NCBI RefSeq assembly: GCF_041103235.1
Contig: NZ_JBGCUN010000003.1
Location: 1-64,000, forward strand
DNA length: 64,000 nt
Direction: 5' to 3'
From: Yoonia sp. R2331
GTDB taxonomy: Bacteria; Pseudomonadota; Alphaproteobacteria; Rhodobacterales; Rhodobacteraceae
Part shown: positions 44,792 through 64,000 of the stretch, piece by piece
Layout: each line of letters starts with the position of its first letter
Numbering within the stretch: position 1 is the first letter of the stretch
Notes under the pieces: model-generated
The model's input: the letters and a program-made list of their open reading frames with translations, nothing else
Told to the model about the DNA's origin: nothing
Databases searched by the model: none
Program-made: the position numbers and the translations under genes

Positions 44792-45679
44792 TTACGAACG
44801 TGCGCCGCTACGTGCGGGCATTAAGCCATCGGGCCGGACCAGAAGGGCCGCAATCACCGCACTCAGTACGATGGCATCGCGGTAAGGTGCCAGCGCATCG
44901 GGAAGAAATGCCTGTGTCAGCACTTCGAAAGTCCCGACGACAAAGCCCCCCAAGACAGCACCACCGAGGCTGCCAAGCCCACCAAGGACCGTTGCAATGA
45001 ATGCCTTCAGGACAGGGAAGAAGCCCATCATCGGGTCAACAGAACCCCGCTGAGCGGTCCAGATGACAGCCGCGACGCCAGCAAGGAGGCCCGATATCGC
45101 AAAAGATATGGCCACGACACGGTTTGCCTTTACCCCAAGCATGCGCAGCATTTCAAAATCTTCTGCAGCCGCGCGCATGGCCATCCCCACTGCTGTTCGC
45201 CTGAGGACAAATGTAAGCAGTCCCAGCGAAATGATCGTGATCAGGATTGATACCGTCGGGGCAATGCCGATCGTCATGCCAGAAATCTGAAATGTTCCCG
45301 ACCAAGAGGAGGGAAACGAAATAGGCACTGGGCGCGGTGATATTCCATTCTGGAAGAGAATCTTCAGTATCTCGGATACGGCGAAACTTGTGATCAGGAG
45401 TGAGATGACATCGGCCCCGCGCATCGCACGAAAGGCTGCCCTTTCCATTGCAAGCGCCATGACGACAGAAGCGCCAATCCCAACTGTCAGAGCCGCGAGC
45501 GGCGGAAAACCGAAAGCCATCGACAGGAAAATACCATACCCGCCAAAGGTCATGATTTCTCCGTGGGCAAAGTTGATCAGCTGGACGATGGAAAACACAA
45601 TTGCCAGTCCAAGCGCCAGCATCGCATAGGTGCCACCGAGGCTTAGCGCGTTGATAAGTTGTTGAAGCAGTTGATCCAT
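44792..45679 (-). CDS. Branched-chain-type amino acid ABC transporter permease (LivH-like)
   Basis: A 295-residue inner-membrane permease with about eight helices. The start MDQLLQQLINALSLGGTYAM and the following AIVFSIVQLINFAHGEIMTF are diagnostic for LivH proteins, as is the LGGLGSLGGAVLGGFVVGTF stretch near the C-terminus. It is the last gene of a minus-strand operon and is 3 bases behind the LivF-like ATPase gene. Paired with the LivM half of the fusion protein two genes upstream. Confidence 0.93.
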   Translation of the reverse strand: MDQLLQQLINALSLGGTYAMLALGLAIVFSIVQLINFAHGEIMTFGGYGIFLSMAFGFPPLAALTVGIGASVVMALAMERAAFRAMRGADVISLLITSFAVSEILKILFQNGISPRPVPISFPSSWSGTFQISGMTIGIAPTVSILITIISLGLLTFVLRRTAVGMAMRAAAEDFEMLRMLGVKANRVVAISFAISGLLAGVAAVIWTAQRGSVDPMMGFFPVLKAFIATVLGGLGSLGGAVLGGFVVGTFEVLTQAFLPDALAPYRDAIVLSAVIAALLVRPDGLMPARSGARS

Positions 45680-49435: not shown

Positions 49436-50079
49436 CAGCCTGCGCCTGCCAATTCAGACACCAGCTCTTTTGTGGTGACCTGTCGGCAATAGCCCTGAAT
49501 GGCCCGCAGGGAATTTTCGTGCCGATCCTGCGAATAGGTCAGGCAGGCATCGGTGACCTGTGTGACCAGATAGCCCAGATCACAGGCGTCCCGGATCGCG
49601 CTTTCGACACATTGATCCGTGATCAGCCCCGAAATGACGATTTGACGCACTCCCAAGTTGCGCAAAACATAATCAATATGCGTCGAGACAAAGACAGAAG
49701 ACGACGATTTGGGCAGTACGATTTCATCGCCCTTGGGTGCGATCTGATCAATCACCTTTCCGTCCCAACTGCCTTTGGGCACATTGAACCCCGTGATCTT
49801 GTAGTCGAGTGAGCGATCCCGCCCATCAAGGGTGAGGCTTTCGATGGTGGTATACATCACCTCGACACCCGCATTGCGTGCCGCGTTCTGGAGGGCCTGC
49901 ATATTGGGAACAACGCGGGTTTCCAGTTGTTCGAAATACCAGCTATACTTCGCCGCGAATTCATCAGGGGGCAGATCTTTGAATTCAGCGCCCTGCCGAT
50001 GGGCGGAAAAGTTTTGGGTATCGACAAACAAGAGAGCCGATTGCTGCGGCACCAGCGGAAGATTTCGGGTCAAGGTCAT
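49435..50079 (-). CDS. Isochorismatase-like cysteine hydrolase
   Basis: A 214-residue hydrolase of the isochorismatase/ureidoacrylate amidohydrolase fold. The catalytic triad is visible: Asp in SALLFVDTQNFSAH, Lys in EIVLPKSSSSVFV and Cys in ISGLITDQCVESAIRDACDL. Members hydrolyse amides such as ureidoacrylate, nicotinamide or biuret. ATG 50079 overlaps the stop of the upstream amidohydrolase by 4 bases and its stop shares a base with the transporter fusion start, so it works with this uptake system. Confidence 0.9.
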   Translation of the reverse strand: MTLTRNLPLVPQQSALLFVDTQNFSAHRQGAEFKDLPPDEFAAKYSWYFEQLETRVVPNMQALQNAARNAGVEVMYTTIESLTLDGRDRSLDYKITGFNVPKGSWDGKVIDQIAPKGDEIVLPKSSSSVFVSTHIDYVLRNLGVRQIVISGLITDQCVESAIRDACDLGYLVTQVTDACLTYSQDRHENSLRAIQGYCRQVTTKELVSELAGAG

Positions 50080-50849
50080 GTTTGTTTTTCCATCACAGCC
50101 GAAATGGCATCGGTCAGCAGCCCTGCCCACATCTCGCAGTCATCATCGGTGGAGATGTTGTCATTCCTGATTTCGATCAGGGCATGAGCAATCTGGCGCG
50201 ACTCAGCGTGTTTGGGGATGAACCAATCGGTTTCATCATCAATCTGGTAAGGTTGGTTCACCGCAAGGGTCAGCGCGGGTTGCTGCCCTGCGATGACGTT
50301 CATCATGTCATGCGCTGTGTCAGTATCCTGTCTGCTTAGAAAACCTGCATCCCATGGCCGCACATCACCGCCCCCGAGGGTTGGGTTAAAAGAGTGGATT
50401 GAGAAACAGGCACTGCGCGGTGAGCGAGCAAACAACTCGCTTAGCGCAGTGTCCATCGGCAGAAAAATCTCTGTGACGCGCTGGGTCCGCTCTTTGGGAG
50501 ATATTGCCATGTTGCCAGGGACCGGGACGCCATCAACCTCGGTCGTTATTGCGTGGGGCCCTTCCGGGGGGCGATTGGCGTCGATCAACAATCGGCTGTA
50601 ATTCTGCAGAACCAGCGGCGCGTTCAACCGCGCGGCCACTGAACGCGCCACAACCTGCGCCCCGATGTCCCAACCACGGTGACTGTTGATCACGGCTTCT
50701 GATAGGCCCAGATTGCCCAGTGACTTTGGAATTGCCCGTCCGGCATGTTCACAAAGCAACACAACCGAAGCCCGACTGTCAGGGTTCACGATATCAATTG
50801 GATCTGGGTCCAGATCGCTAAGAATCGTCTCTGTGGCATCAGTTGTCAT
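50076..50849 (-). CDS. N-formylglutamate amidohydrolase-like protein
   Basis: A 257-residue member of the FGase family, zinc peptidase-like amidohydrolases that remove a formyl or similar group from an amino acid. Family marks are VVLLCEHAGRAIPKSLG, SHRGWDIGAQVVARSVAARL, LIDANRPPEG, CFSIHSFNPTLGG and VNQPYQIDDETDWFIPKHAE. It is the first gene of the minus-strand operon with the cysteine hydrolase and the ABC transporter. No histidine-degradation genes are nearby, so the substrate is probably not formylglutamate from histidine. Confidence 0.88.
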   Translation of the reverse strand: MTTDATETILSDLDPDPIDIVNPDSRASVVLLCEHAGRAIPKSLGNLGLSEAVINSHRGWDIGAQVVARSVAARLNAPLVLQNYSRLLIDANRPPEGPHAITTEVDGVPVPGNMAISPKERTQRVTEIFLPMDTALSELFARSPRSACFSIHSFNPTLGGGDVRPWDAGFLSRQDTDTAHDMMNVIAGQQPALTLAVNQPYQIDDETDWFIPKHAESRQIAHALIEIRNDNISTDDDCEMWAGLLTDAISAVMEKQT

Positions 50850-50930: not shown

Positions 50931-51770
50931 ATGACTGTAAAAGACATGATCGAAAGAGCCGCTGAACACCTTACGCAATCCGAGCGAAAACTCGTTGCGG
51001 CGTTGCTGTCAGATTACCCGTTCGCCGGGCTGCTCAACATTCAGGAACTCGCCAGCGAGGCAAGTGTATCTGCGCCTTCGATTTCCAGATTCACAGCCAA
51101 AATCGGGCTGTCCGGTTACCCGGAAATGCAACGACTGCTTCTGGAAGAGTTACGCAGCGGCGAAATTTCACCTGTGGATTTGCACGACTCCGGCAAGCGG
51201 ATCGAGGGCAGCTATCTGGCGGGTTTCCTGAGCAGAGCCGCCAGTCAGATTGAATCTGCGGGCCGGGCCATAACCGACGAACAGTTTAACCGGATAACGG
51301 CGCTTCTGTCAGATCCCAAACGTCAGGTTTTTGCTTTAGGCGGACGTATCAGTGACACGATCGCACGGCATATGACGTTCCACCTCGATCAGTCGCGCGT
51401 GGGTGTACACCATATTTCGCGCGACCCTGAATCCTGGCCCGGTCATATTTTGCGCATGAATGCAGGCGATGTGGTTTTTCTGGTGGATTTCAGACGGTAC
51501 GAACCGGCGCTGGCGCGTTTGGCAAAGGCCGCCGCAACCAAACGGGTGAAAATCGTACTTCTGACGGACAGTTGGATTTCTCCAATCAAGAAAAACGCGG
51601 CTGAAGTGCTTGCGGTTCCCATTGAAACCGGCACTGTCTGGGACAGCTATGCTGCGGCCCTTGCGATCGTCGAGGCCATCGTCGCCAGTACAGCAGAAGT
51701 GACCTGGGACGGGACGCGCACGCGCATCGAATCCTGGGACGCCACCCGCATCCTGACATCGGAGACATAG
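50931..51770 (+). CDS. MurR/RpiR family transcriptional regulator
   Basis: A 279-residue regulator with an N-terminal HTH_6 domain (about 5-75, with NIQELASEASVSAPSISRFT) and a SIS sugar-phosphate-binding-like domain (about 110-250, with VFALGGRISDTIARHMTFHL and AGDVVFLVDFRRYEPALARL). RpiR members sense phosphorylated metabolites, which fits a neighbouring kinase. It is divergent from the hydrolase/transporter operon and 2 bases upstream of the ligase gene, so it probably controls both sides through the two palindromes between them. Confidence 0.92.
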   Translation: MTVKDMIERAAEHLTQSERKLVAALLSDYPFAGLLNIQELASEASVSAPSISRFTAKIGLSGYPEMQRLLLEELRSGEISPVDLHDSGKRIEGSYLAGFLSRAASQIESAGRAITDEQFNRITALLSDPKRQVFALGGRISDTIARHMTFHLDQSRVGVHHISRDPESWPGHILRMNAGDVVFLVDFRRYEPALARLAKAAATKRVKIVLLTDSWISPIKKNAAEVLAVPIETGTVWDSYAAALAIVEAIVASTAEVTWDGTRTRIESWDATRILTSET

Positions 51771-51772
51771 GT

Positions 51773-53074
51773 ATGAGCGATCTGGTTTTTGCCGCGACGT
51801 GTGATTTGGCAGGTAAGGTCCGGGGCAAAGCGTTTCCCGCAGATCAATTGAACAAACGGTTGCAGCGCGGCGTCGGCTGGACGCCGACCAATGTGCAAAT
51901 CACCTGTTTTGACGGAATTGCCGAAAGCCCATTCGGGTCTTTTGGTGATCTGCTTTTGGTGCCGGACGAGAAAGCGGATGTGTGTGCGACATTTGGTGCC
52001 ACGACCGAAAGATTCATGCTTGGGGATATTGTCACGTTAGATGGTGATCCTTGGGATTTCTGTATGCGTTCCCTGCTGCGCGCGGCGCTTGACCGGTTGC
52101 GCGCACTTGCAGGTGTCGACGTGTTGGCCGCGTTTGAGCATGAGTTTCAGCTGAAGGGGGATTCAGACATCACGGGCGGCGCGTTCGGGCGATCTGCGTT
52201 CGAACCCCGCCGCGCGTTTTGTGAAACCCTGATCGCAAAAATCGCTGAGGCCGGGCTGAGCCCTGACAGCATCATGAAAGAATATGGCGCAAATCAGTTT
52301 GAGGTTGTTATCGGTCCGGAACTCGGTGTCCGTGCTACCGATGCATCCGTTATTGTTCAGGAGATCACCCGCTCGACCGCACGGCACGTGGGTGAAACGG
52401 CGACTTTCGCTCCGATCCTTGACCCGGCCGGGGTCGGCAATGGCGTCCATGTCCACATGAGTTTTCTGCACAAGGACGGCTCTCCGGCAACGCATGATCC
52501 CGAAGGACCTTGTGGCATGTCTGCCTTGACAGCGGCCTTTTCCGCCGGGGTTCTGAAGTATCTCGACAGTATTTTGGCCCTGACCGCGCCCTCGGTGGTG
52601 TCTTATCTTCGGCTGACGCCACACCGATGGTCTGCGGCCTACAACAATCTTGGGTTTCGCGACAGAGAGGCATCGCTGCGGGTTTGCCCCGTCACAGCCC
52701 AGGATCCAACAAGCGTTGCGCGTCAGTTCAATATTGAATTCAGGGCCGCCGATGCTGCTGCTTGCCCGCATCTGGCACTGGCGGCAATTGTCCACGCGGG
52801 GTGTCAGGGTATTGAGGACAATCTGCCTGCGCCATCACCCACCGAGGAGGATCTATCCCTTTTGTCAAAAGACGAACTGACATCACGCGGGTTGGTGCGA
52901 TTGCCGCAAACGCTGGAATCCGCGCTGGACCTGTTTGCAAACAACCCAACGGTCACAGGATGGTTTCCAAAAGGATTTGCAAGCGTTTACGTGGCCCACA
53001 AAACCGCCGAGATGGACCATGTAAAAGGGATGGATACTGCCCAGAAATGTGCTGCGTATTCCGAAACATACTAG
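51773..53074 (+). CDS. Glutamine-synthetase-family ligase (PuuA/GlnT-like)
   Basis: A 433-residue enzyme of the GS fold with the catalytic parts in place: metal-binding Glu residues in LAAFEHEFQL and KEYGANQFEVVIGP, GVGNGVHVHMSF, the TPHRWSAAYNNLGFRDREAS phosphate/ADP stretch, and FNIEFRAADAAACPHLALAA. It is not a standard GlnA (shorter, no adenylylation region) and should couple glutamate to an amine at the cost of ATP, as gamma-glutamylpolyamine or -ethanolamide synthetases do. It lies between the regulator (2 bases) and the fusion gene (7 bases). Confidence 0.85.
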   Translation: MSDLVFAATCDLAGKVRGKAFPADQLNKRLQRGVGWTPTNVQITCFDGIAESPFGSFGDLLLVPDEKADVCATFGATTERFMLGDIVTLDGDPWDFCMRSLLRAALDRLRALAGVDVLAAFEHEFQLKGDSDITGGAFGRSAFEPRRAFCETLIAKIAEAGLSPDSIMKEYGANQFEVVIGPELGVRATDASVIVQEITRSTARHVGETATFAPILDPAGVGNGVHVHMSFLHKDGSPATHDPEGPCGMSALTAAFSAGVLKYLDSILALTAPSVVSYLRLTPHRWSAAYNNLGFRDREASLRVCPVTAQDPTSVARQFNIEFRAADAAACPHLALAAIVHAGCQGIEDNLPAPSPTEEDLSLLSKDELTSRGLVRLPQTLESALDLFANNPTVTGWFPKGFASVYVAHKTAEMDHVKGMDTAQKCAAYSETY

Positions 53075-53081
53075 GATGGAC

Positions 53082-56078
53082 ATGATGAGCCATTGGCAAC
53101 AGGCGCTGGCAGATAAATGGCATATCCACACGACTCTTACCCAGCTTGACGGCGAATACGACCTTAATTTTCTGGCGCGCGACGATGCTGGAAACGGTTT
53201 CATCCTGAAGGTCATGCGCCCGGATTGCGAAGAGTGGTTGGTTGACCTGCAGGTCCGCGCGTTCGAGCATTTGGCAAAGCGCGAACCAGATTTGCCGTGT
53301 CCAAAGGTGATCCCCGCCGCCAACGGGGAGGCCTACGCAACGATCAACGATGCCGCCGGTCGACCACGACTTGTGTGGCTTTTGAGTGAACTCTCAGGGC
53401 GCTGCTATGCCGAAATGAAGCCCAAAAGCCCTGCGCTGGCCCATGAGATCGGGCAGATATTGGGCACCTGCGCCAAAGCACTCAGCGACTTTGCGCACGA
53501 CAAACTGGCCCGCGATTTCAAATGGAACCTTATGCAAGCTGGCTGGATTCGTGACCAACTGTCGTGCCTGACGGACCCAACCCGAAAAGCCATGATCGAC
53601 ACGATTTGCGACGGGTTTGATGCCGTGCTGCCGACCCTAACCGCGTTGCCGCAGCAGGCTATTCACAATGACGCCAATGATTACAATATCCTCGTCGCAG
53701 GTCAGTTGAATGAACCGCGCCGGGTCTCTGGTTTGATTGATCTGGGCGATATGTGCAAAGCGCCGCGCATTTGCGATCTTGCCATCGCGGCGGCCTATCT
53801 GGTGCTGGATGTTGACCATCCAGAGGCCATGCTGGCGGCGCTGGTTGCGGGCTTCCATAGCACCGCGCCGTTGACCGCCGCCGAGGTTGATCTGATCTGG
53901 CCGCTTGTTCGCATGCGGCTTGCCGTCAGCGTTGTCAATTCCACCCTGATGGCAAAGGACAACCCGAACGACCCCTATGTGACGATCTCGCAAGCGCCAG
54001 CTTGGAGGTTTCTTGAAGGCAACGATCTTGACCCGAAATTGCTGAACGTGCGCCTGCGCGCAGCCTGTGGCCTGCCAGTGGTTGAGGGGGCGGACCGGGT
54101 TTTGAAATGGATCAGCACCGAACGCGGTCATTTTGCCCATGTCATGGGACAGGATATTTCAGATGCCCCGATGGGGTCACTATCGGTCGAAAACGCCAGC
54201 ACCCCGCTAAACCCCTTTCATTTGCCCCAGGAAGAAGCCGCCTTGATCGGGCAGGAGTTCAACGACAAGGGCCGAGTGTGGCTGGGCTATTATAACGAAC
54301 CTCGACTGATCTATGCTGATCCGGCGTTTCGCAACGGGCCATGGAAAGCGAGCGATCGACGCACGGTTCATTTGGCGGTGGATGCATTTGCCCCCGCAGG
54401 CACCCCGATCTTCGCTCCGCTCGATGGCACCGTCTATTTGGCCACGTATCGCGAAGGGCATCTGGATTACGGTGGCTTGATCATCTTGCGCCATGAAACC
54501 CCTGCGGGGGATGCGTTTTACACGCTGTATGGCCATCTGGATCCCGAATTTCAGGATAGGCTGAGCGCAGGCGATATGGTGTCCAAAGGGCAAGCATTTT
54601 GCCAATTGGGTGATCCCACAATGAACGGCGGCTGGGCGCCTCATTTGCATTTTCAAATGGCACTGACCATCGATGGCATGGGCTTAGACTGGCCCGGTGT
54701 GGCAGATCCGGATGATCTGTACCTTTGGAATGCGATCTGCCCCAATCCTGCGGCACTGCTGAATGTTCCAGATGGCAATGTGCTTTATCAACCGACCGAC
54801 AAGGCGCGGATTGCCGCCGAACGCCGCGCGCATTTCGGGGGCAACCTGTCGTTGACCTACAACGACCCGATCATGCTGGTTCGGGGCTGGAAACACCACA
54901 TGTTCGACGAATGGGGCAGACCATACCTTGATGCCTACAACAACGTCCCCCACGTCGGTCATGCCCATCCCCGGATTCAGGCCGTGGCTGCGGATCAGCT
55001 GAAGCGGATGAATTCAAACACCCGATATTTGCATCCGGCCCAAACGGCATTTGCCGAAAAGGTACTGTCAAAGCTGCCCGACACGTTCGAAACCTGCTTT
55101 TTCGTCAATTCAGGGAGCGAAGCCAACGAATTGGCCCTGCGCCTTGCCCGTGCGCAGACCAACGCCAGAGGAATTGTCACGCCCGATCACGGCTATCATG
55201 GCAACACGAACGAAGCCGTCGCAATATCGGCCTACAAATTCAATAAACCGGGCGGAGTTGGTCAAGCGGGTTGGGTCGAATTGGTCGAAGTGGCCGACGA
55301 CTATCGCGGATCCTTTCGCAGGGGCGATCCGGAACGCGCGCAGAAATACGCAGACCTCGTTCGTCCGGCCATCGCCGCGTTGCAGGCGAAAGGCCACGGC
55401 GTCGCTGGCTTTATCGCCGAGACTTTCCCCTCGGTCGGGGGACAGATTATCCCGCCGATTGGGTATCTGGCGGCTGTCTATGAAAAGATCCGCGCGGCCG
55501 GTGGGGTCTGTATCGCCGATGAGGTCCAAACCGGATTGGGCCGTTTGGGCGACTACTACTTTGGCTTCGAACAACAAGGCGTTGTGCCGGACATTGTGGT
55601 GTTGGGCAAACCGATTGGCAATGGTCACCCGATTGGTGTGGTCGTCACGACCAAGGAAATCGCCGCACGCTTTGACAATGGGATTGAGTTTTTCTCGACC
55701 TTCGGTGGGTCGACGCTTTCATGCAGGATTGGCAAAGAGGTTCTGGATATCGTCGACGATGAAGACCTTCAGGGGAATGCGCAGCGCATGGGTGCGCGCC
55801 TTATGAACGGGCTAAAGACGCTTGAGGCGCAATTTGCCTGCGTCGGTGATGTGCGGGGCATGGGGCTTTTCCTGGGGGTGGAACTGATCAATCCAGATGG
55901 ATCGGAAGCGACCGAAATCTGTGCTTACATCAAGAACCGTATGCGGGACCACCGCATCTTGATTGGAAGCGAAGGGCCCAAGGACAACATACTCAAAATC
56001 AGGCCGCCCATGACGATTGAGGCGGACGATGTGGATATGATCGTGACTGTGCTCGATAGCGTCCTATCGGAAGTTTAA
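53082..56078 (+). CDS. Three-domain fusion: hydroxylysine-kinase-like, M23 peptidase, AGXT2L-type phospho-lyase
   Basis: A 998-residue protein. Residues 1 to about 345 are an aminoglycoside-phosphotransferase-fold kinase close to vertebrate hydroxylysine kinase: LSGRCYAEMKPKSP, FKWNLMQAGW, AIHNDANDYNIL, SGLIDLGDMCKAP and HSTAPLTAAE. Residues about 425-560 are an M23/LytM domain with its zinc ligands, H430/D434 (VHLAVDAF) and H521/H523 (HLHFQ). Residues about 590-998 are a class III PLP domain of the AGXT2L phospho-lyase group: PLP Lys843 in VLGKPIGNGHP, VGDVRGMGLFLGVELI and SEGPKDNILKIRPPM. The kinase would phosphorylate a hydroxyl-amine compound, and the lyase would release phosphate and ammonia. 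The M23 role is unknown. No signal peptide. Start: 53082 or 53085. Confidence 0.87.
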   Translation: MMSHWQQALADKWHIHTTLTQLDGEYDLNFLARDDAGNGFILKVMRPDCEEWLVDLQVRAFEHLAKREPDLPCPKVIPAANGEAYATINDAAGRPRLVWLLSELSGRCYAEMKPKSPALAHEIGQILGTCAKALSDFAHDKLARDFKWNLMQAGWIRDQLSCLTDPTRKAMIDTICDGFDAVLPTLTALPQQAIHNDANDYNILVAGQLNEPRRVSGLIDLGDMCKAPRICDLAIAAAYLVLDVDHPEAMLAALVAGFHSTAPLTAAEVDLIWPLVRMRLAVSVVNSTLMAKDNPNDPYVTISQAPAWRFLEGNDLDPKLLNVRLRAACGLPVVEGADRVLKWISTERGHFAHVMGQDISDAPMGSLSVENASTPLNPFHLPQEEAALIGQEFNDKGRVWLGYYNEPRLIYADPAFRNGPWKASDRRTVHLAVDAFAPAGTPIFAPLDGTVYLATYREGHLDYGGLIILRHETPAGDAFYTLYGHLDPEFQDRLSAGDMVSKGQAFCQLGDPTMNGGWAPHLHFQMALTIDGMGLDWPGVADPDDLYLWNAICPNPAALLNVPDGNVLYQPTDKARIAAERRAHFGGNLSLTYNDPIMLVRGWKHHMFDEWGRPYLDAYNNVPHVGHAHPRIQAVAADQLKRMNSNTRYLHPAQTAFAEKVLSKLPDTFETCFFVNSGSEANELALRLARAQTNARGIVTPDHGYHGNTNEAVAISAYKFNKPGGVGQAGWVELVEVADDYRGSFRRGDPERAQKYADLVRPAIAALQAKGHGVAGFIAETFPSVGGQIIPPIGYLAAVYEKIRAAGGVCIADEVQTGLGRLGDYYFGFEQQGVVPDIVVLGKPIGNGHPIGVVVTTKEIAARFDNGIEFFSTFGGSTLSCRIGKEVLDIVDDEDLQGNAQRMGARLMNGLKTLEAQFACVGDVRGMGLFLGVELINPDGSEATEICAYIKNRMRDHRILIGSEGPKDNILKIRPPMTIEADDVDMIVTVLDSVLSEV

Positions 56079-56082
56079 ACGC

Positions 56083-56101
56083 GCTGGGCTCTGCGCCCAG
56101 C
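56083..56101 (+). terminator. Weak hairpin after the fusion gene
   Basis: Seven-base arms GCTGGGC/GCCCAGC with a 5-base loop, four bases past the stop. There is no T-run, so it is at best a weak terminator. The rest of 56079-56192, between two convergent genes, shows nothing else. Confidence 0.35.
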
Positions 56102-56192
56102 CGATTCAGGGGGCAGAAAAGCGAACATTTATGTGCCTCTGTGCGTGTTTTCACCGTGCCGAGCAAAAAGGTAAGGTGGGTCTTTCTGCCGC

Positions 56193-57074
56193 TCATAAGG
56201 TACCGACAATCCAGGTCATGAATTTCTCGACCTGAGGCTTGATCGGAGCCTGTTCCGGCCAGACGAGGAAATACTGCCCATCGGTGTGGGTCGGGCTTCC
56301 AAACGCCGAGGTCAGCCTGCCACGCGCGATCTCGGACTGCGCCAGATAGTCCGGCAACAGCGCAACTCCCATGCCGTGAACGGCGGCTTGTGCCATTGTG
56401 GAAAACTGATCGAACAACATCCCCGGAACAGCGCCGACACTCACACCCTGACGGCCAAACCAGTCTTGCCAAGCACCGGATCGCGTTTCCAGATGTAGAA
56501 GCGGCAAGTCCGTCAAGTCAGCAACGCTGGCGAGGGGCTTTGCCAGAAAACTTGGCGCGCAGACTGGCAACAGCTCTTCGCCGGCAAGGCGCAGATACCC
56601 AACGCCCGGCCAGTCTTGGGCGCCGTAGTGGATGGCGGCATCCAGCGGTTCGCGGTCAAAATCAAATGGCCTGAGCCGCGTCGACAGATTGACAGTTACT
56701 TCGGGATGCTCCACCGCGAATGATTTCAGGCGCGGGGCCAGCCAATGCATCCCGAACGCAGGCAGGATCGCCAGATTAAGGCTACCACCCGCCGGATTTG
56801 CCCGTAGGCGCAGCGTGTTTTGCGACAGATCAGCCAGCATGGCGCGTATCTGTCCGCAATAGTCATGTGCCGCAGGTGTCAATTTCAAACCAACGCCGTC
56901 ACGCACCACCAGTTTGACGCCAATCTGCCCCTCCATGACTTTGATCTGTCGACTGACTGCGCTGTGGGTCAACGACAGTTCGTTTGCCGCAGCTGTCGCC
57001 GTGCCCAGCCGGTCAACCGCTTCCAATGCAAGAAGAGACGGAATGGACGGAAGATAACGGCGGGGACCAAACAT
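56193..57074 (-). CDS. LysR family transcriptional regulator (GcvA-like)
   Basis: A 293-residue LysR regulator. The winged HTH is near the N-terminus (LALEAVDRLGTATAAANELS, LTHSAVSRQIKVMEGQIGVK), and the effector domain resembles the GcvA group (LNLAILPAFGMHWLAPRLKSF, LSTRLRPFDFDREPLDAAIH). It is divergent from the aminotransferase/glutaryl-CoA dehydrogenase operon with a 97-base gap and should control it. ATG 57074 is taken rather than a TTG five codons upstream. Confidence 0.92.
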   Translation of the reverse strand: MFGPRRYLPSIPSLLALEAVDRLGTATAAANELSLTHSAVSRQIKVMEGQIGVKLVVRDGVGLKLTPAAHDYCGQIRAMLADLSQNTLRLRANPAGGSLNLAILPAFGMHWLAPRLKSFAVEHPEVTVNLSTRLRPFDFDREPLDAAIHYGAQDWPGVGYLRLAGEELLPVCAPSFLAKPLASVADLTDLPLLHLETRSGAWQDWFGRQGVSVGAVPGMLFDQFSTMAQAAVHGMGVALLPDYLAQSEIARGRLTSAFGSPTHTDGQYFLVWPEQAPIKPQVEKFMTWIVGTL

Positions 57075-57075
57075 G

Positions 57076-57088
57076 TGAGTTTTTCTCA
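57076..57088. promoter_or_regulatory. Small dyad TGAG-N5-CTCA at the LysR promoter
   Basis: Four-base arms TGAG (57076-57079) and CTCA (57085-57088) lie immediately before the LysR start in the divergent gap. LysR proteins use short dyads of the T-N11-A kind, so this is a possible site, but the match is weak. Confidence 0.25.
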
Positions 57089-57171
57089 AATAGATGCGCG
57101 TGAGTCTTGATAGCCGTTTGCATTAAAACATGGCAACACAAGATAGCTGTCCACCCTTGGCCGTGAGAAAA

Positions 57172-58368
57172 ATGCAAAATATCCCTGCTTCATCCGAACT
57201 TAGGCCCGCCAACAGGTTGGACGGCATCGACCTTTCTGAGATCGTGCAGATATCGGAACGGGCGGCGCGGTTGCGGGCGGCGGGGGAAGATATCGTAACG
57301 CTCTCGACCGGTGAGCCGGACCTGCCAACACCCGATCACATCATAGAGGCGGCGAATACCGCAGCGCGCGCGGGCCAGACGCGTTACACCGCGACGGCTG
57401 GCACGCCAGAATTGCGCAACGCCGTTGCCCAAGATGCAGGCGTCGCGATGTCCGATGTCATGATTTCGACCGGCGCCAAACAAGTGATCGCCAATGCCAT
57501 GCTGGCGACGTTGAACGCGGGTGATGAAGTGATCATGCCTGCCCCGTTTTGGACCAGTTACGCCGATATTGTGCGTCTTGCCGGTGGCGTTCCAGTGATC
57601 GTCCCCTGTGGCATGGACACTGGGTTCAAGCTGACACCCGAAGCACTGGCCGCCGCCCTGACACCGCGCACACGGTGGCTGATGCTGAACTCTCCCTCGA
57701 ACCCGTCGGGTGCTGTCTATGCTGCGGAGGAGATCGCCGCCCTTGCCACCGTTCTTGAAACGCAACCCGGCGTCATGGTGCTGGCCGACGAGATTTACCG
57801 CGAGCTGTGTTACTTGCCTTTCGCCTCTTTCACAGACGCGGCCCCTGATTTGCGTGACCGCACCTTGATTGTGGACGGTGTCTCAAAAGCGTTTTCAATG
57901 ACCGGATGGCGCATTGGCTGGGGCATCGGCCCTGCGGCGCTGATCTCGGCGATGATCAAGGTTCAGGGTCAAGTGACCTCTGGGGCGTGCTCTGTCGCGC
58001 AAGCCGCCGCACTGGCTGCGGTCACCGGGGACCGCAGCCTGCTGGACACCCGCCGAGCCCTGTTTCTGAAACGGCGCGATACGGTTGTATCAGGGCTAAA
58101 TGCAGTTGCTGGACTTACGTGTCCCGCGCCGGATGGCGCATTCTACGCATTCCCGTCTTGCGCTGATCTGCTGACGGACGCGGGCGGTCCCTTTGTCGAT
58201 GACGCTGCCCTTTGCGCATGGCTGTTGGACACCGCAGGTGTCGCGATTGTTCCGGGCCGCGCCTTTGGTCTGCCCGGCCATTTGCGCCTGTCATTTGCCT
58301 ATTCTGACGCAGACCTGTCGACCGCTTTGACGCGGGTCACCGACGCCCTTGAGAGGAAAACACAATGA
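57172..58368 (+). CDS. PLP-dependent class I/II aminotransferase
   Basis: A 398-residue fold-type I aminotransferase of the AspC/KAT group. Visible marks are [14 protein letters not shown]-like [43 protein letters not shown] and the PLP lysine in [20 protein letters not shown]. In an operon with glutaryl-CoA dehydrogenase and an E1-type dehydrogenase the fitting reaction is 2-aminoadipate to 2-oxoadipate, though a family member could as well act on aspartate or aromatic amino acids. Start ATG 57172 fits the family; ATG 57130 would add 14 residues. Its stop overlaps the next gene by 4 bases. Confidence 0.9.
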
Positions 58369-59567
58369 AAGACGGCTTTGGCCCCTCGCTCAGCGGATTT
58401 GATTGGGAAGATCCATTCCGCATGTCCGACCAACTGACCGAAGAAGAGCGGATGATCGCAGAAGGCGCGCGCGCCTATGCCAGCGACAAGCTCGCCCCGC
58501 GCATCACGGACGCCTATCTAAACGAAACGGTCAGCCCAGAAATATTTGCTGAAATGGGTGAAATGGGGCTGCTGGGCGTTACGATCCCCGAGGCATACGG
58601 TGGCATCGGCGCGGGTTACGTGGCTTATGGTCTGGTCGCCCGCGAGGTTGAGCGGGTGGACAGCGGATACCGGTCAATGATGTCGGTTCAAAGCTCTTTG
58701 GTGATGTATCCGATCCATGCCTATGGGTCAGAGGCGCAAAAGCAGAAATACCTTCCCGGTCTGGCCGCTGGCACATTGATCGGCTGTTTCGGTCTGACCG
58801 AACCGGATGCAGGCAGTGACCCTGCGGGTATGAAAACGACCGCCAAAAAGACCGAGGGCGGCTATGTCATCAACGGCGCAAAGATGTGGATTTCCAATTC
58901 ACCCATTGCGGATGTCTTTGTGGTCTGGGCCAAATCAGAGGCTCACGGCGGAAAGATACGCGGCTTTGTCTTGGACAAGGGCATGACAGGCCTCAGCGCG
59001 CCCAAGATCGGCGGCAAGCTATCGCTCCGGGCGTCCGTCACGGGCGAAATCGTGATGGACAACGTCGACGTGGGTGAAGACGCGCTGTTGCCCGGGGTCG
59101 AGGGGCTGAAGGGCCCGTTTGGCTGCCTGAACCGCGCACGTTTCGGCATTTCATGGGGTGTCATGGGCGCGGCAGAAGATTGCTGGCACCGGTCGCGGGC
59201 TTACGGTCTGGATCGCAAGCAGTTCGACCGCCCGCTGGCCCAAACGCAGCTGTTCCAGAAAAAGCTGGCTGATATGCAGACCGACATCGCCCTTGGCCTG
59301 CAGGGCAGCCTGCGGGCGGGCCGGATGTTGGACGCAGGCACCTGCGCGCCCGAGGTGATTTCCCTGATAAAGCGCAACAATTGCGGCAAGGCATTGGATA
59401 TCGCACGACATGCGCGCGACATGCATGGCGGCAATGGGATCATGGCGGAATACCATGTGATGCGGCACGCCCAGAACCTTGAAACTGTGAACACCTATGA
59501 AGGCACATATGATGTCCACGCATTGATCCTTGGCCGCGCGCAAACCGGCCTTCAGGCGTTTTTCTGA
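58365..59567 (+). CDS. gcdH: Glutaryl-CoA dehydrogenase
   Basis: A 400-residue decarboxylating acyl-CoA dehydrogenase that turns glutaryl-CoA into crotonyl-CoA. Group marks are [49 protein letters not shown]-like [18 protein letters not shown], and the base glutamate E379 in [20 protein letters not shown]. The N-terminus [20 protein letters not shown] is also typical. FAD; electrons to ETF. It overlaps the aminotransferase gene by 4 bases and the E1 gene follows after 11 bases. Confidence 0.93.
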
Positions 59568-59578
59568 GGGTTTTGAGA

Positions 59579-61765
59579 ATGGATCGTGCGTCAATCGTGC
59601 ATGAGAACTTTGCGGTGCGGGTCGGGGCGAACGATCTGCCCCAGGGAAACGCGCCGACCGGTCCCTTGCGGCCTGCACAGGCGGTGGGACTGTTTCGCGC
59701 CCAGGTTCTGAGCCGCGCGCTGGATATGCAAGCGCGGGCGATGCAAAAGGCGGGGCAAGGGTTCTACACCATTGGATCGTCTGGCCACGAAGGCATGGCT
59801 GCTGTTGCTGCGGCACTGCGCCCGACAGACATGGCGTTTTTGCATTACCGCGATGCGGCATTTCAACTGGCGCGCGCCGATCAGGCGCCGGGCCAATCGG
59901 CGACTTGGGATATGCTGCTGAGCTTTGCAGCCTCGTCCGAGGATCCGATTTCCGGTGGTCGCCATAAGGTGTTGGGCAGCCGCGCGCTGATGATCCCGCC
60001 GCAGACCTCGACCATTGCAAGCCACTTGCCCAAAGCGGTCGGGGCGGCCTATTCCATTGGCCTTGCACGACGTCGACCACCTGAACACCGCTTGCTGAAA
60101 GACGACGGGCTGGTGATGTGTTCGTTTGGCGATGCCTCGGCCAACCATTCGACCGCCCAAGGGGCGTTCAACACCGCGAGCTGGACCGCCTATCAATCCG
60201 TGCCGCTGCCCCTGATGTTCGTGTGCGAAGACAATGGCATCGGCATTTCCACCAAGACGCCTGACGGCTGGGTCGCCGCCAATTTTGCTGGGCGGCCGGG
60301 CCTGAAATACTTTTCCTGCGACGGGTTGGATATCTTTGACACCTTCCGCGCAGCACAAGAGGCTGCGCATTTTGTGCGTAGCCGCCGCAAGCCTGCATTC
60401 CTGCACATCCGGACCGTGCGGCTTTTCGGACATGCCGGCGCAGATATGCCCACGACTTATCTTCCAAAAGCCGAAGTCGAAGCAGACGAGGCAAACGATC
60501 CGCTTTTGCATTCTGTGCGCCTGTTACGAGATACCGGGGCGCTTGAGCCATCAGATGCACTGACGATCTACAACGAGACTCAGGCGCGTGTGGGTCGCGT
60601 CGCGGCCGAAGTCGTGACGCGACCGCGCCTGAAATCAGCCAGCGATGTTATGGCGTCGTTGATCCCGCCGCGACGGGACTGCAAGCCCACCAACGGGCCG
60701 ACACCGGAGGCCCGGGCAAACGCCTTTGGCAGTGATTTGAAATCCATGGATCAGCCCCAGCCGATGTCCCGGCTTCTCAATTGGGCACTGACCGATCTGA
60801 TGCTGGAATACCCCGAAATCGTCATGATGGGCGAGGACGTGGGCCGAAAGGGCGGCGTCTATGGCGTGACGCAAAAGCTGCACGCACGTTTTGGCCCTGA
60901 CAGGATGATCGACACCTTGCTGGACGAACAATCTATTCTGGGTCTCGGCATCGGCCTTGCGCAAAACGGCTTTTTGCCGATGCCTGAAATCCAGTTTCTT
61001 GCCTATCTGCATAACGCCGAGGACCAGCTACGCGGTGAGGCAGCAACCTTGCCGTTTTTCTCCAATGGTCAATTTACCAACCCGATGGTGCTGCGCATCG
61101 CGGGGCTTGGCTATCAAAAGGGCTTTGGCGGGCATTTCCATAATGACAATTCCGTCGCCGTGTTGCGCGATATTCCCGGTCTGATCCTCGCCTGCCCGTC
61201 TGACGGGGCCGATGCAGCCCGGATGCTGCGCGAATGCGTAAGACTGGCGCGCGAGGAACAGCGGTTGGTGGTCTTCCTGGAGCCCATCGCGCTTTATCCA
61301 ATGCGAGATCTGCACAAAGACGGCGATCGCGGCTGGATGCGGACATACCCGGCCCCGAATGAAAGCATCGCACTTGGCAATGTCGGAATGACCGGCGACG
61401 GCCCCGTCGCGCTGATCAGTTTCGCCAATGGACACCGCTTGTCGCTGCAGGCACAGGCGCGGCTGGCCGCAGATGGCATTGACACCCGTGTGATCGACCT
61501 GCGTTGGCTGTCGCCGCTGCCAAAGGCCGCCCTCATGGCCGCTTTGGAAGGATGTTCACACGCCCTGATCGTCGATGAAACCCGCCGCACAGGCGGCGTT
61601 TCCGAAGCGGTGATGACATTGATCGCCGAGCAAACAGACCTGCCACAAGCACGCCTTGCGGCCCATGACAGTTTTATCGCAACCGGCCCAGCCTATGGCG
61701 TCACGATGCCTGACACGGACGGTATCATTGCAGCCACAAAACAGCTGATTGGGGCGGGTCGATGA
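59579..61765 (+). CDS. 2-oxoacid dehydrogenase E1, fused alpha and beta parts
   Basis: A 728-residue thiamine-diphosphate enzyme with alpha part 1 to about 370 and beta part about 400-728, as in fused branched-chain-type E1. The TPP-binding region is MCSFGDASANHSTAQGAFNT with VCEDNGIGISTKT; beta marks are VMMGEDVGRKGGVYGVTQKL, IGLAQNGFLPMPEIQFLAYL and VDETRRTGGVSEAVMTLIAE. In this operon the expected substrate is 2-oxoadipate. No E2 or E3 gene is visible in the window. ATG 59579 follows GAGGG; its stop overlaps the acyltransferase gene by 4 bases. Confidence 0.88.
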   Translation: MDRASIVHENFAVRVGANDLPQGNAPTGPLRPAQAVGLFRAQVLSRALDMQARAMQKAGQGFYTIGSSGHEGMAAVAAALRPTDMAFLHYRDAAFQLARADQAPGQSATWDMLLSFAASSEDPISGGRHKVLGSRALMIPPQTSTIASHLPKAVGAAYSIGLARRRPPEHRLLKDDGLVMCSFGDASANHSTAQGAFNTASWTAYQSVPLPLMFVCEDNGIGISTKTPDGWVAANFAGRPGLKYFSCDGLDIFDTFRAAQEAAHFVRSRRKPAFLHIRTVRLFGHAGADMPTTYLPKAEVEADEANDPLLHSVRLLRDTGALEPSDALTIYNETQARVGRVAAEVVTRPRLKSASDVMASLIPPRRDCKPTNGPTPEARANAFGSDLKSMDQPQPMSRLLNWALTDLMLEYPEIVMMGEDVGRKGGVYGVTQKLHARFGPDRMIDTLLDEQSILGLGIGLAQNGFLPMPEIQFLAYLHNAEDQLRGEAATLPFFSNGQFTNPMVLRIAGLGYQKGFGGHFHNDNSVAVLRDIPGLILACPSDGADAARMLRECVRLAREEQRLVVFLEPIALYPMRDLHKDGDRGWMRTYPAPNESIALGNVGMTGDGPVALISFANGHRLSLQAQARLAADGIDTRVIDLRWLSPLPKAALMAALEGCSHALIVDETRRTGGVSEAVMTLIAEQTDLPQARLAAHDSFIATGPAYGVTMPDTDGIIAATKQLIGAGR

Positions 61766-62790
61766 AAACAGCCGTGCTGATTTGCCCCGGTCGCGGGACT
61801 TATAACAAAGACGAGCTTGGCTATCTGTCGCGCCATTTTCCCGACCGCCAGTTGATGGCCGAATTTGACACGACCCGCACAGCGGCGGGTCAGACAACAA
61901 TTTCGGACCTTGATGGCGCAGCCCGGTTCAGCGCAGCGACTCATACACGTGGCGACATCGCGTCAGGTCTGATCTTTGCGGCAACGATCGGGGACCACCT
62001 GAGTATCAACCGCAATGAAATCGACATCGTCGCTGTGACCGGCAATTCGATGGGCTGGTATTCGGCCCTTGCCTGCGGCGGGTCCGTCACCCCGCAAGCG
62101 GGCTTTGAGATCAGCAATACCATGGGCACGCTGATGCAAGAGGCATTGATCGGAGGGCAGTTGATCTATCCGTTTGTTGGGGAAGATTGGGTGCCGGACC
62201 TTGAACGCAAAGCCGCTCTTCTCGACACTGTCGCAGAAATTAACGACCGCAAAGGCAACGTTCTCGCCCTGTCCATCGACCTTGGCGGCATGCTGGTTCT
62301 GGCAGGCAATGACGCAGGCCTTGCCGCGTTCGAGGCGTCCGTCCCACCCGTTCAGGGCCGTTTCCCCATGCGTTTGCCAAATCACGCGGCCTTTCACACA
62401 GCCCTTCAGACCCAGGTAGCTGACCAAGGTCGCGCACGCCTGTCCCGTCATCTGATCGGTCAGCCGAACCTGCCTTTGATTGATGGGCGCGGGGCAATCT
62501 GGTGGCCGGATGCGTCTGACACCGACGCTCTTTATGACTACACGTTGGGAGCCCAAGTGACTGAAACCTATGACTTTACGCGCGCCATCGCCATAGCTGC
62601 GCGAGAGTTTGCGCCCGACCTGTTCATCATCACCGGACCGGGGACCACGCTTGGCGGCGCCGTTGCCCAGTCGCTGAATTTGTCGAATTGGCAGGGCCTT
62701 GCGACCAAAGCCGATTTTCAATCCAGACAAGCCGACGCGCCGTTCCTTATCGCGATGGGTAACGCGGCGCAGCGGGCTATCGTGACTTAA
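61762..62790 (+). CDS. FabD-like acyltransferase
   Basis: A 342-residue protein of the ACP S-malonyltransferase (FabD) fold. The nucleophile Ser96 is in VTGNSMGWYSAL, where the usual GHSLG has become GNSMG, and a catalytic His is in LPNHAAFHTAL (H212). It starts ICPGRGTYNKDELGYL, like FabD proteins. Inside a glutaryl-CoA operon next to an E1 without E2, it may move an acyl group between an acyl carrier (or lipoyl domain) and CoA. That is a guess. It overlaps the E1 gene by 4 bases; the aldehyde dehydrogenase gene follows after 12 bases. Confidence 0.78.
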   Translation: MKTAVLICPGRGTYNKDELGYLSRHFPDRQLMAEFDTTRTAAGQTTISDLDGAARFSAATHTRGDIASGLIFAATIGDHLSINRNEIDIVAVTGNSMGWYSALACGGSVTPQAGFEISNTMGTLMQEALIGGQLIYPFVGEDWVPDLERKAALLDTVAEINDRKGNVLALSIDLGGMLVLAGNDAGLAAFEASVPPVQGRFPMRLPNHAAFHTALQTQVADQGRARLSRHLIGQPNLPLIDGRGAIWWPDASDTDALYDYTLGAQVTETYDFTRAIAIAAREFAPDLFIITGPGTTLGGAVAQSLNLSNWQGLATKADFQSRQADAPFLIAMGNAAQRAIVT

Positions 62791-62802
62791 GGAAAGAGCC
62801 AA

Positions 62803-64000
62803 ATGACAATTCATGGCGATACTCTCAAAGCCGCAGGACTGACCGATGCCGAACTGAAAGGGGGTAGCCTGACTGTGTGCTCCCCCATTTGACGGGACGG
62901 AGGTCGCGCAGGTCCATGAACCCCCCTTGTCGGACATGGATGCAATCATCGAAGGGTCTCAGGACGCCTTCGAAGCGTGGCGTCAGGTGCCCGCCCCGCG
63001 GCGCGGCGAATTGGTCCGCCTTCCGGGCGAAGAACTGCGCGCCGCCAAGGCCGAATTGGGCGCCGTCGTAACGCTGGAAGCAGGCAAGATCACCTCCGAG
63101 GGCTTGGGCGAGGTGCAGGAAATGATCGACATTTGCGACTTTGCGGTCGGTCTGTCACGCCAGCTTTATGGACTGACAATTGCGTCCGAGCGTCCCGGTC
63201 ATCGCATGATGGAAACTTGGCATCCGATGGGCCCTTGCGGCGTGATCACGGCCTTTAACTTTCCCGTCGCGGTTTGGTCGTGGAACACTGCCCTTGCGCT
63301 TGTGTGCGGCAATCCGGTCATCTGGAAACCCTCTGAGAAATCCCCGCTAACGGCGCTGGCCGCGATGAAGATCATGAAACGCGCGCTGGCGCGGTTTGGC
63401 GATGCCCCCGAAGGTCTGGTTCAGGTTGTCATCGGCGGTGCAGATGTGGGTGCAGCCCTTGTGGCCTCGCCCGACGTTCCGATCCTTTCTGCCACCGGAT
63501 CAACGCGCATGGGATCCATCGTCGGCCCGCAGGTCGCCGCCCGGTTTGGCCGCCCGATCCTTGAACTTGGGGGCAACAACGCCATGATCGTGGCCCCTTC
63601 CGCCGATATGGACATGGCGGTGCGCGCCATTGTCTTTTCAGCTGTCGGGACCGCAGGCCAACGCTGCACCACATTGCGCCGCTTGATTGTCCACAATTCG
63701 GTCCGCGTTGATCTGGTGAACAAACTGGCCAAAGCCTACGCAAGCCTGCCTGTCGGCGATCCGCGCAGCGATGGCACATTGGTTGGCCCACTCATTGATC
63801 AGCACGCCCTGACCGCGATGCAATCCGCATTGGCCGCAGCAAAGGTGCAGGGCGGCACCGTATACGGCGGCGAGGCCGTGAAGGTTGGGACAGGCGGTGC
63901 CTACGCAGCCCCTGCCATCGTTGATATGCCCAAACAGTCAGACATAGTGCGCACGGAAACCTTTGTACCCATCCTTTATGTCGTGGGCTACGATACCTTT
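62803..64000 (+). pseudogene. ALDH7-family aminoadipate-semialdehyde / piperideine-6-carboxylate dehydrogenase, frameshifted, runs off the edge
   Basis: The gene starts at ATG 62803 (MTIHGDTLKAAGLTDAELKG) with GGAAAGAG upstream, reads to TVCSPI, then meets TGA at 62890. Removing one T (62888-62890) restores PIDGTEVAQVHEPPLSDMD and an open frame to 64000. Downstream parts are typical of antiquitin/AmaB: GLSRQLYGLTIASERPGHRM, AFNFPVAVWSWNTALALVCG, ELGGNNAMIV and the catalytic Cys in GQRCTTLRRL. The reaction is 2-aminoadipate semialdehyde to 2-aminoadipate. A reading error, a real mutation or restart at ATG 62936 (losing about 45 residues) are all possible. Confidence 0.82.

What the first reader, a model, noticed from the sequence alone, without database searches (positions are those of the whole stretch)
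50931..64000. Candidate hydroxylysine-type catabolic island feeding into glutaryl-CoA
Two neighbouring gene sets hold, in one stretch, a hydroxylysine-kinase-like domain fused to an AGXT2L phospho-lyase domain, an ALDH7 aminoadipate-semialdehyde dehydrogenase, an aminotransferase, an E1 2-oxoacid dehydrogenase and glutaryl-CoA dehydrogenase. In vertebrates hydroxylysine kinase and AGXT2L2 turn 5-hydroxylysine into aminoadipate semialdehyde, the substrate of ALDH7; the remaining steps lead to crotonyl-CoA. An ABC importer of the amino-acid type is divergent. The family calls are from sequence; the order of steps follows known biochemistry; the linkage of both clusters and the substrate are inference.
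Basis: partly seen in the sequence, partly recalled or inferred. Interest (0 to 1): 0.8.

Follow-up and report, generated by a model that had tools for sequence, protein, structure and literature searches.

The report
Amino-alcohol breakdown enzyme beside lysine genes
A marine bacterium carries a three-part enzyme that probably strips phosphate and ammonia from a hydroxylated amine, next to genes that finish off lysine; hydroxylysine is a good but untested guess for what it eats.

Summary
The genes are there. The "two-domain fusion" (53082-56078) has three domains: APH kinase, M23 zinc-peptidase fold and a class-III PLP domain with phospholyase motifs (45% identical to human ETNPPL). It scores 1513.8 bits to PRK06148 (cut-off 1128). 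The second unit (LysR, aminotransferase, glutaryl-CoA dehydrogenase, E1, FabD-like protein, ALDH7) is the aminoadipate branch of lysine catabolism.

Searches of this genome for five known sources of the semialdehyde found none convincing. Fusion and ALDH7 co-occur (20 of 31 fusion genomes, 15 of 117 others; genus level p=0.01).

Against: 11 of 31 fusion genomes lack ALDH7; seven ALDH7 genomes without the fusion also show no convincing source among those searched; the fusion's commonest partner is an amine/amide block (7 of 16 genera), the lysine genes in 2 of 16. The domains cannot tell hydroxylysine from ethanolamine.

Verdict: amino-alcohol kinase-phospholyase likely; hydroxylysine plausible, unproven.

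The parts
44792..45679 (-). LivH-type ABC permease (block A importer)
   Evidence: PF02653 131.2 bits
45683..46393 (-). LivF-type ABC ATPase
   Evidence: PF00005 99.5 bits
46407..47555 (-). periplasmic binding protein
   Evidence: PF13458 191.9 bits
47552..49435 (-). LivM-LivG fused permease/ATPase
   Evidence: PF02653 + PF00005
49435..50079 (-). isochorismatase-fold amidohydrolase
   Evidence: PF00857 110.3 bits; RutB TIGR03614 82.9 bits, cut-off 378
50076..50849 (-). N-formylglutamate-amidohydrolase-family protein (FGase)
   Evidence: PF05013 107.4 bits
50931..51770 (+). RpiR/MurR-type regulator with SIS domain
   Evidence: PF01418, PF01380
51773..53074 (+). glutamine-synthetase-like ligase, probably a gamma-glutamyl amine ligase; closest solved relative PA5508 (4hpp)
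   Evidence: PF00120 215.8 bits; 4hpp 340.6 bits
53082..56078 (+). fusion: APH kinase (res. 20-261) - M23 (429-527) - class III PLP phospholyase (599-994)
56193..57089 (-). LysR-type regulator of the second unit
   Evidence: PF00126, PF03466; a LysR gene beside the cluster in many relatives
57130..58368 (+). class I/II aminotransferase, probable 2-aminoadipate aminotransferase
   Evidence: PF00155 245.7 bits; best PDB 6f35 391.9 bits; role inferred
58365..59567 (+). glutaryl-CoA dehydrogenase
   Evidence: 3gnc 590.7 bits, 1siq 539 bits
59573..61765 (+). fused E1 alpha-beta 2-oxoacid dehydrogenase, probable 2-oxoadipate dehydrogenase E1
   Evidence: PF00676, PF02779, PF02780; substrate inferred
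61762..62790 (+). FabD/MdcH-like acyltransferase-fold protein of unknown role
   Evidence: TIGR03131 39.7 bits, below cut-off; no Pfam match; beside E1 in 7 of 7 other loci with E1
62927..64000 (+). ALDH7, aminoadipate semialdehyde / piperideine-6-carboxylate dehydrogenase (continues to C3:64297)
   Evidence: NF050084 789.5 bits, cut-off 730; best PDB 6dbb 689, Pcd 6rtr 619 bits

Best explanation
Two neighbouring units that probably meet at one metabolite. Unit 1 (block A plus fusion) imports and unwraps an amide or amine and hands a vicinal amino alcohol to the fusion: the APH domain phosphorylates the hydroxyl, and the PLP domain eliminates phosphate and ammonia to leave an aldehyde. Unit 2 is the aminoadipate branch: ALDH7 oxidises aminoadipate semialdehyde/P6C, the aminotransferase makes 2-oxoadipate, E1 (with E2/E3 from elsewhere) makes glutaryl-CoA, and glutaryl-CoA dehydrogenase makes crotonyl-CoA. 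In this genome the most likely joining metabolite is aminoadipate semialdehyde, so the most likely substrate is 5-hydroxy-L-lysine, with the fusion taking the place that lysine dehydrogenase has elsewhere. Shown by sequence: gene content, domain types, catalytic residues, conserved neighbourhoods. Inferred: every substrate, the direction of flow, and any activity of the M23 domain.
For: PLP domain: best solved relatives are the phospholyases 6tor (396.9 bits) and 5g4i (303.7), the next is 167.4; it shares the motifs NNV..GH, N..TRY, DEVQ, GKPxGNGHP, FFxTFGG and NILKIRPP wholly or nearly with them and not with four class III aminotransferases of related blocks and one of its own genome; the predicted model matches 6tor and 5g4i with TMt 0.88. 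Kinase residues H195/D197/N202/D220/D223 conserved. Slot swap: G051 has [ALDH7, MdcH-like, E1, GcdH, AT] LysR, a lysine-dehydrogenase-like gene, an Lrp-type gene, GS, RpiR, FGase, amidohydrolase, importer; the window has the same order and orientation with the fusion in place of the dehydrogenase and Lrp genes. Co-occurrence of fusion and ALDH7: 20 of 31 fusion genomes, 15 of 117 others; genera 9 of 16 against 12 of 56, p=0.010. Own genome: no lysine-dehydrogenase-like gene at 1e-25; one Sacchrp_dh_C match, in a frame that by eye begins like homospermidine synthase (not named by NCBIfam); best AmaA match 174.3 bits, cut-off 600 (AmaA-like query absent at 1e-60); no LodA_C; best lysine 6-transaminase match 118.7, cut-off 520.8.
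Against: 11 of 31 fusion genomes have no ALDH7, among them 5 of the 9 in which the fusion sits with block A. Seven ALDH7 genomes without the fusion (G014, G024, G045, G080, G093, G112, G114) show no lysine-dehydrogenase-like gene and at best a weak, distant AmaA-like one, so their absence here proves little; an unrecognised class III lysine 6-transaminase is possible, as a transaminase route was proposed for Phaeobacter inhibens (PMC5653290, passages). The GS tree puts the window's block A with G052 and G106 (92/89, below the tool's star), whose blocks carry the fusion without ALDH7, so block and fusion may have come as a unit unrelated to lysine. In Pseudomonas fluorescens 5-hydroxylysine is reported to be degraded by the monooxygenase and racemase routes (PMC12930750, passages). 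The PLP domain's closest solved relative is the ethanolamine-phosphate enzyme; closeness to PHYKPL was not tested.
Confidence: 0.42

Rival explanations
1. The fusion acts on another vicinal amino alcohol (ethanolamine, (R)-1-amino-2-propanol or a similar short compound) released by block A, and the lysine unit is only a neighbour. Block A (importer, FGase, amidohydrolase, GS-like ligase, sometimes an acetamidase/formamidase) is the real functional partner.
For: Block A beside the fusion in 7 of 16 fusion genera of the order, again in 2 of 8 other fusion genomes of the class (G407, G183) and on a Paracoccus seriniphilus plasmid; the GS tree forces at least 4 changes of the fusion label, so the pairing arose or was lost repeatedly. 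Five of the nine block-plus-fusion genomes of the order lack ALDH7. Block A without the fusion stands with class III aminotransferases, with an annotated aspartate aminotransferase family protein in Shinella and with an aldehyde dehydrogenase in Phyllobacterium. PLP domain nearest to ETNPPL among solved structures.
Against: The slot swap with a lysine-dehydrogenase-like gene in G051 and the genus-level co-occurrence with ALDH7 need another reason. No aldehyde dehydrogenase lies in unit 1 of the window.
Confidence: 0.38
2. Unit 2 is an ordinary lysine (or D-lysine/pipecolate) catabolic operon fed by an unrecognised lysine 6-transaminase or oxidase elsewhere in the genome; the adjacency of the fusion is chance.
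For: Seven other ALDH7 genomes also lack the sources searched for. Several class III aminotransferases are present in G000, one 34% identical to the one beside ALDH7 in G037. A transaminase route from lysine to the semialdehyde was proposed for P. inhibens (PMC5653290, passages).
Against: Block A and the lysine cluster are next to each other in 2 of the 8 genera (3 of 10 genomes) that hold both, unlikely by chance (my rough arithmetic: about 1% per genome for 20 kb either side in 4 Mb; not a call).
Confidence: 0.15

Closest known systems
Human ETNPPL (AGXT2L1) and PHYKPL (AGXT2L2) ammoniophospholyases with hydroxylysine kinase HYKK (Veiga-da-Cunha 2012; recalled, its reference seen in PMC8154272)
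   Same: PLP domain of the same subfamily, 45% identical to ETNPPL over the aligned part with the subfamily motifs; a kinase step followed by phosphate/ammonia elimination is the same logic.
   Different: One polypeptide here, with an M23 domain between; the kinase matches only generic APH; no substrate known. PHYKPL and HYKK sequences were not at hand for comparison.
Arthrobacter aurescens phospholyase A1RDF1 (5g4i)
   Same: 40% identical PLP domain, same motifs, TMt 0.88.
   Different: The solved chain (446 residues) has no kinase or M23 domain.
NCBIfam PRK06148 (NF004799)
   Same: Full-length member: 1513.8 bits, cut-off 1128, residues 2-998.
   Different: The family is named 'hypothetical protein'; the only paper listed for PRK06148/PRK06149 is on another subject by its title (listing).
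Lysine dehydrogenase and pipecolate routes of roseobacters (Ruegeria pomeroyi, PMC4334477 passage; Phaeobacter inhibens, PMC5653290 passages)
   Same: Unit 2 carries the same downstream steps; Ruegeria-type loci have the dehydrogenase-like gene beside ALDH7.
   Different: The window genome has the fusion where G051 has the dehydrogenase-like gene.
PA5508-type gamma-glutamyl ligase (4hpp)
   Same: 340.6 bits over residues 4-433.
   Different: PA5508 is reported to prefer bulky amines (PMC6478659 passages); the substrate here is unknown.

Membership tests
AGXT2L-type PLP phospholyase | nearest relatives are proven phospholyases, with a clear gap to aminotransferases | tested here: met
   396.9 and 303.7 bits against 167.4 for the next
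AGXT2L-type PLP phospholyase | subfamily motifs shared with 6tor and 5g4i, absent from aminotransferases | tested here: met
   motif table, five class III aminotransferases as contrast; the motif choice is mine from that alignment
AGXT2L-type PLP phospholyase | phosphate and ammonia release from an O-phosphorylated amino alcohol | not testable with these tools
   needs enzyme assay
PHYKPL (5-phosphohydroxylysine specific) | closer to PHYKPL than to ETNPPL, specificity residues | not tested
   no PHYKPL sequence or structure was at hand
Hydroxylysine kinase (HYKK) | sequence closer to HYKK than to other APH kinases; activity on hydroxylysine | not tested
   only PF01636 82.2 bits; no PDB relative
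Hydroxylysine kinase (HYKK) | intact APH catalytic residues | tested here: met
   H195, D197, N202, D220, D223 invariant in 30 of 30 and in the 21 of 23 rows that have a kinase domain; residue roles recalled
PRK06148 three-domain family | score above family cut-off over full length | tested here: met
   1513.8 against 1128
M23 (LytM) zinc peptidase | HxxxD and HxH zinc/catalytic residues | tested here: met
   H430, D434, H485, H521, H523 invariant in 30 of 30 and in 23 of 23 rows; residue roles recalled
M23 (LytM) zinc peptidase | secreted peptidoglycan hydrolase with activity | not tested
   lies between an ATP and a PLP enzyme, so presumably cytosolic; no signal-peptide tool used
ALDH7 / P6C dehydrogenase | score above NF050084 cut-off | tested here: met
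   789.5 against 730
Lysine catabolic (aminoadipate) cluster | ALDH7 with aminotransferase, E1, glutaryl-CoA dehydrogenase | tested here: met
   all present; the same set in whole or part in G051, G061, G071, G093, G098, G105
Lysine catabolic (aminoadipate) cluster | a known semialdehyde/P6C-forming enzyme in the genome | tested here: not met
   five kinds searched: saccharopine dehydrogenase C domain, lysine-dehydrogenase-like, lysine 6-transaminase, LodA_C, AmaA

The most novel reading that the evidence does not exclude
A one-polypeptide unwrap-phosphorylate-eliminate enzyme: the M23 domain, with an intact zinc site inside a presumably cytosolic protein, cleaves an amide or peptide bond to free a hydroxylated amine (for example hydroxylysine from collagen-type peptides), the kinase phosphorylates it and the PLP domain turns it into an aldehyde. 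Supporting hints: two M23-PLP variants without the kinase keep the zinc site, and in three split operons, where kinase and PLP enzyme are separate proteins, a histone-deacetylase-like or an M20 amidohydrolase gene stands beside them.
Probability: 0.18. Interest if true: 0.72.

Novelty: new variant of a known kind. Interest (0 to 1): 0.45.

Why it matters
If true, it gives a function to a 'hypothetical' three-domain family found across Rhodobacterales and in rhizobia, shows a kinase-phospholyase route to aminoadipate semialdehyde in bacteria (known to me from vertebrates, recalled), and offers a clean test: the enzyme stands in the chromosomal slot of a lysine-dehydrogenase-like gene. Marine animal collagen would be a natural source of hydroxylysine (inference).

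Tried and rejected
Rejected: a plain transaminase role for the fusion's PLP domain (scores and motifs). Rejected: a saccharopine-dehydrogenase-family gene 26-27 kb from the fusion in G075 as evidence of lysine linkage; it stands with an arginase-family gene and a decarboxylase-domain gene and looks like polyamine synthesis. Weakened: the argument that this genome has no other semialdehyde source, since seven other ALDH7 genomes look the same. Led nowhere: Rfam and tRNA scans of the window (none); PDB search with the kinase alone; papers: PRK06148/6149 (one unrelated title), bacterial hydroxylysine kinase or phospholyase (full listings; 20 of 889 listed; no bacterial kinase-phospholyase route seen in titles and abstract starts), lysine dehydrogenase cluster by exact phrases (none), lysine catabolism in Ruegeria (20 of 72 listed). 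A wrong frame was sent to NCBIfam (the reverse frame of the L107 gene); the right one went. Not done: comparison with HYKK and PHYKPL sequences; zinc-site geometry in the model; phylogeny of the fusion itself.

Counting notes: the order sample was 148 genomes drawn by the tool; fusion presence means above the NF004799 cut-off; ALDH7 presence means E <= 1e-120, where the weakest listed hit had 68% identity; GS presence means E <= 1e-100. Both genomes of the window's species are counted in genome-level figures. The ORF picker takes the longest frames and sometimes chose shadow frames; most neighbourhood claims rest on the tblastn runs, and the pairing of fusion and block. The named-genome scan kept the best 80 of at least 531 relatives, so it is biased to close kin; one search counts hits of at least 40% identity and 40% coverage. 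Alignment A1 holds 30 fusions from 29 of the 31 genomes: the same-species copy (L026) and the G105 copy were left out, G142 is there twice. In one search I meant to include six class III loci of the own genome; a filter in my script let only one through. In one search the blocks of G043, G118 and G021 showed GS, FGase and amidohydrolase but no RpiR match.
Full report
What is there. The window is contig C3:1-64000 of an unnamed 4.03 Mb genome; the same species is represented by a contig titled 'uncultured Rhodobacteraceae bacterium isolate 516-3Z' (L130, best segment 100% identical). Downstream of it come a regulator-like gene, a peroxiredoxin-like gene and an Lrp-alanine dehydrogenase pair (names by eye). 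No structured RNA at the gathering thresholds and no tRNA was found in the window.

The fusion is three-domain: APH (20-261), Peptidase_M23 (429-527) and Aminotran_3 (599-994), a full-length member of PRK06148. A glutamine-synthetase-like ligase precedes it directly; its nearest solved relative is PA5508, reported to prefer bulky amines over polyamines (PMC6478659, passages). A FabD/MdcH-like gene sits between E1 and ALDH7.

What the fusion probably does. The PLP domain's best solved relatives are two phospholyases, well clear of the rest, and the predicted model agrees (mean pLDDT 84.4; 6tor and 5g4i TMt 0.88; the PLP part has low-confidence loops). In a motif table it goes with the two phospholyases and largely with three stand-alone enzymes of split operons, and not with four class III aminotransferases found beside related blocks or one of its own genome. 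Kinase, M23 and PLP catalytic residues are invariant in 30 of 30 fusions of the order. In a second alignment of 23 rows (window, 11 class-level loci, 3 plasmid loci, 8 of the 80 named loci) M23 and PLP residues are conserved in 23 of 23 and kinase residues in the 21 rows that have a kinase. So kinase plus phospholyase acting on an amino alcohol is likely; the substrate is not told by sequence.

The lysine unit. Across 148 genomes of the order ALDH7 occurs in 35. A tblastn map of the ALDH7 surroundings of 29 of these 35 (the window included; the other six were not fetched) shows the same partners (AT, GcdH, E1, FabD-like, LysR) in varied subsets, with a possible source of the semialdehyde often beside them: a saccharopine-dehydrogenase-family gene (Pfam; weak PDB kin 3abi), which I read as lysine dehydrogenase because Ruegeria pomeroyi is reported to have a lysine dehydrogenase pathway leading to aminoadipate (PMC4334477, passage); or an AmaA-like pipecolate oxidase (one such neighbour scores 402.9 bits to NF050086, cut-off 600); or a HemL-like class III enzyme in G037. 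By the coordinates, the dehydrogenase-like gene is within 15 kb of ALDH7 in 15 of the 35 genomes and the AmaA-like gene in 8. The window genome has neither at the thresholds used (AmaA by profile 174.3 bits, cut-off 600), no LodA_C, no lysine 6-transaminase above cut-off, and its one Sacchrp_dh_C protein begins like homospermidine synthase (by eye; no NCBIfam match).

The slot swap. In G051, which has no fusion above cut-off, the lysine cluster, LysR, the lysine-dehydrogenase-like gene, a divergent Lrp-type gene, GS, RpiR, FGase, amidohydrolase and importer genes follow one another in the order of the window read backwards; the dehydrogenase (with Lrp) stands where the fusion stands here. GS (1e-100) and ALDH7 (1e-120) are both held by 10 genomes of 8 genera and are neighbours in two of these genera, the window's and that of G051.

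What speaks against it. Fusion and ALDH7 co-occur in 20 of 31 fusion genomes and 15 of 117 others (Fisher 2.6e-8), but by genus in 9 of 16 against 12 of 56 (p=0.010), and genera are still not independent. Eleven fusion genomes have no ALDH7. In the named scan, 53 of 80 loci show none of the window's other genes within the flanks held; 23 of 80 show LysR with AT, E1 or FabD-like genes upstream, 21 of them labelled Ruegeria, the others KLH11 and a MAG; one further locus shows GcdH, one LysR alone, one block A, and one is the window's own species. Block A stands next to the fusion in 9 of 32 fusion loci of the order (7 of 16 genera), and 5 of those 9 genomes lack ALDH7. Block A, or most of it, also stands without the fusion beside it in 12 genomes, with formamidase-like or class III aminotransferase genes in some; in Phyllobacterium an annotated aldehyde dehydrogenase lies near it. 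The GS tree needs 5 changes of the fusion label, at least 4 forced by well-supported branches (25 of 500 shuffles as low), so the pairing of block A and fusion came or went repeatedly; the window's GS groups with G052 and G106 (92/89), which carry the fusion but not ALDH7.

Beyond the order, 9 of 289 class-level genomes pass the cut-off, the window's own included. Of the other eight, two (G407, G183) again have RpiR, GS, a class III aminotransferase and the fusion in a row; I saw no block A and no ALDH7-cluster match beside the fusion in the other six. On plasmids the fusion is found in 89 records, 64 of them Sinorhizobium; of five plasmid stretches opened one, Paracoccus seriniphilus, shows block and fusion together.

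Prior knowledge. The vertebrate route (HYKK, PHYKPL, ETNPPL) is recalled from Veiga-da-Cunha 2012, which is cited in PMC8154272 (passages and one section) but was not held. In Pseudomonas fluorescens hydroxylysine is reported to be degraded by other routes (PMC12930750, passages). My searches (searches list only 20 each) showed no paper, by title and abstract start, on a bacterial hydroxylysine kinase-phospholyase; that covers only the open-licence library.

Verdict. Chemistry of the fusion (amino-alcohol kinase-phospholyase) about 0.85; partnership with block A about 0.85; hydroxylysine as substrate in this genome about 0.4. The finding is real, partly misdescribed, and worth a simple enzyme test.

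Noticed in passing
53082-56078, residues 429-527: M23 peptidase fold with all five active-site residues invariant inside a kinase-PLP fusion without an obvious export signal (by eye).
   Followed up: partly
61762-62790: FabD/MdcH-like gene stands beside E1 in 7 of 7 other loci with E1; Pfam gives no match and the cluster has no E2 or E3. Its role is unknown.
   Followed up: no
L072, L074, L079: Split kinase and phospholyase genes stand with histone-deacetylase-like, ThDP-enzyme, M20 or importer-type genes in varied sets; perhaps an N-acyl amino alcohol pathway.
   Followed up: partly
L245:9229-11028, L246:8648-10672: M23-PLP proteins without the kinase domain in G183 and G407, near importer-like genes (by eye).
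   Followed up: partly
L129:10209-11150, L057:19347-20000: Acetamidase/formamidase (PF03069) gene beside block A, suggesting amide substrates.
   Followed up: partly
L140: Contig titled Nocardioides marinus carries a Rhodobacterales-type fusion (best segment 74% identical); perhaps a mislabelled genome.
   Followed up: no
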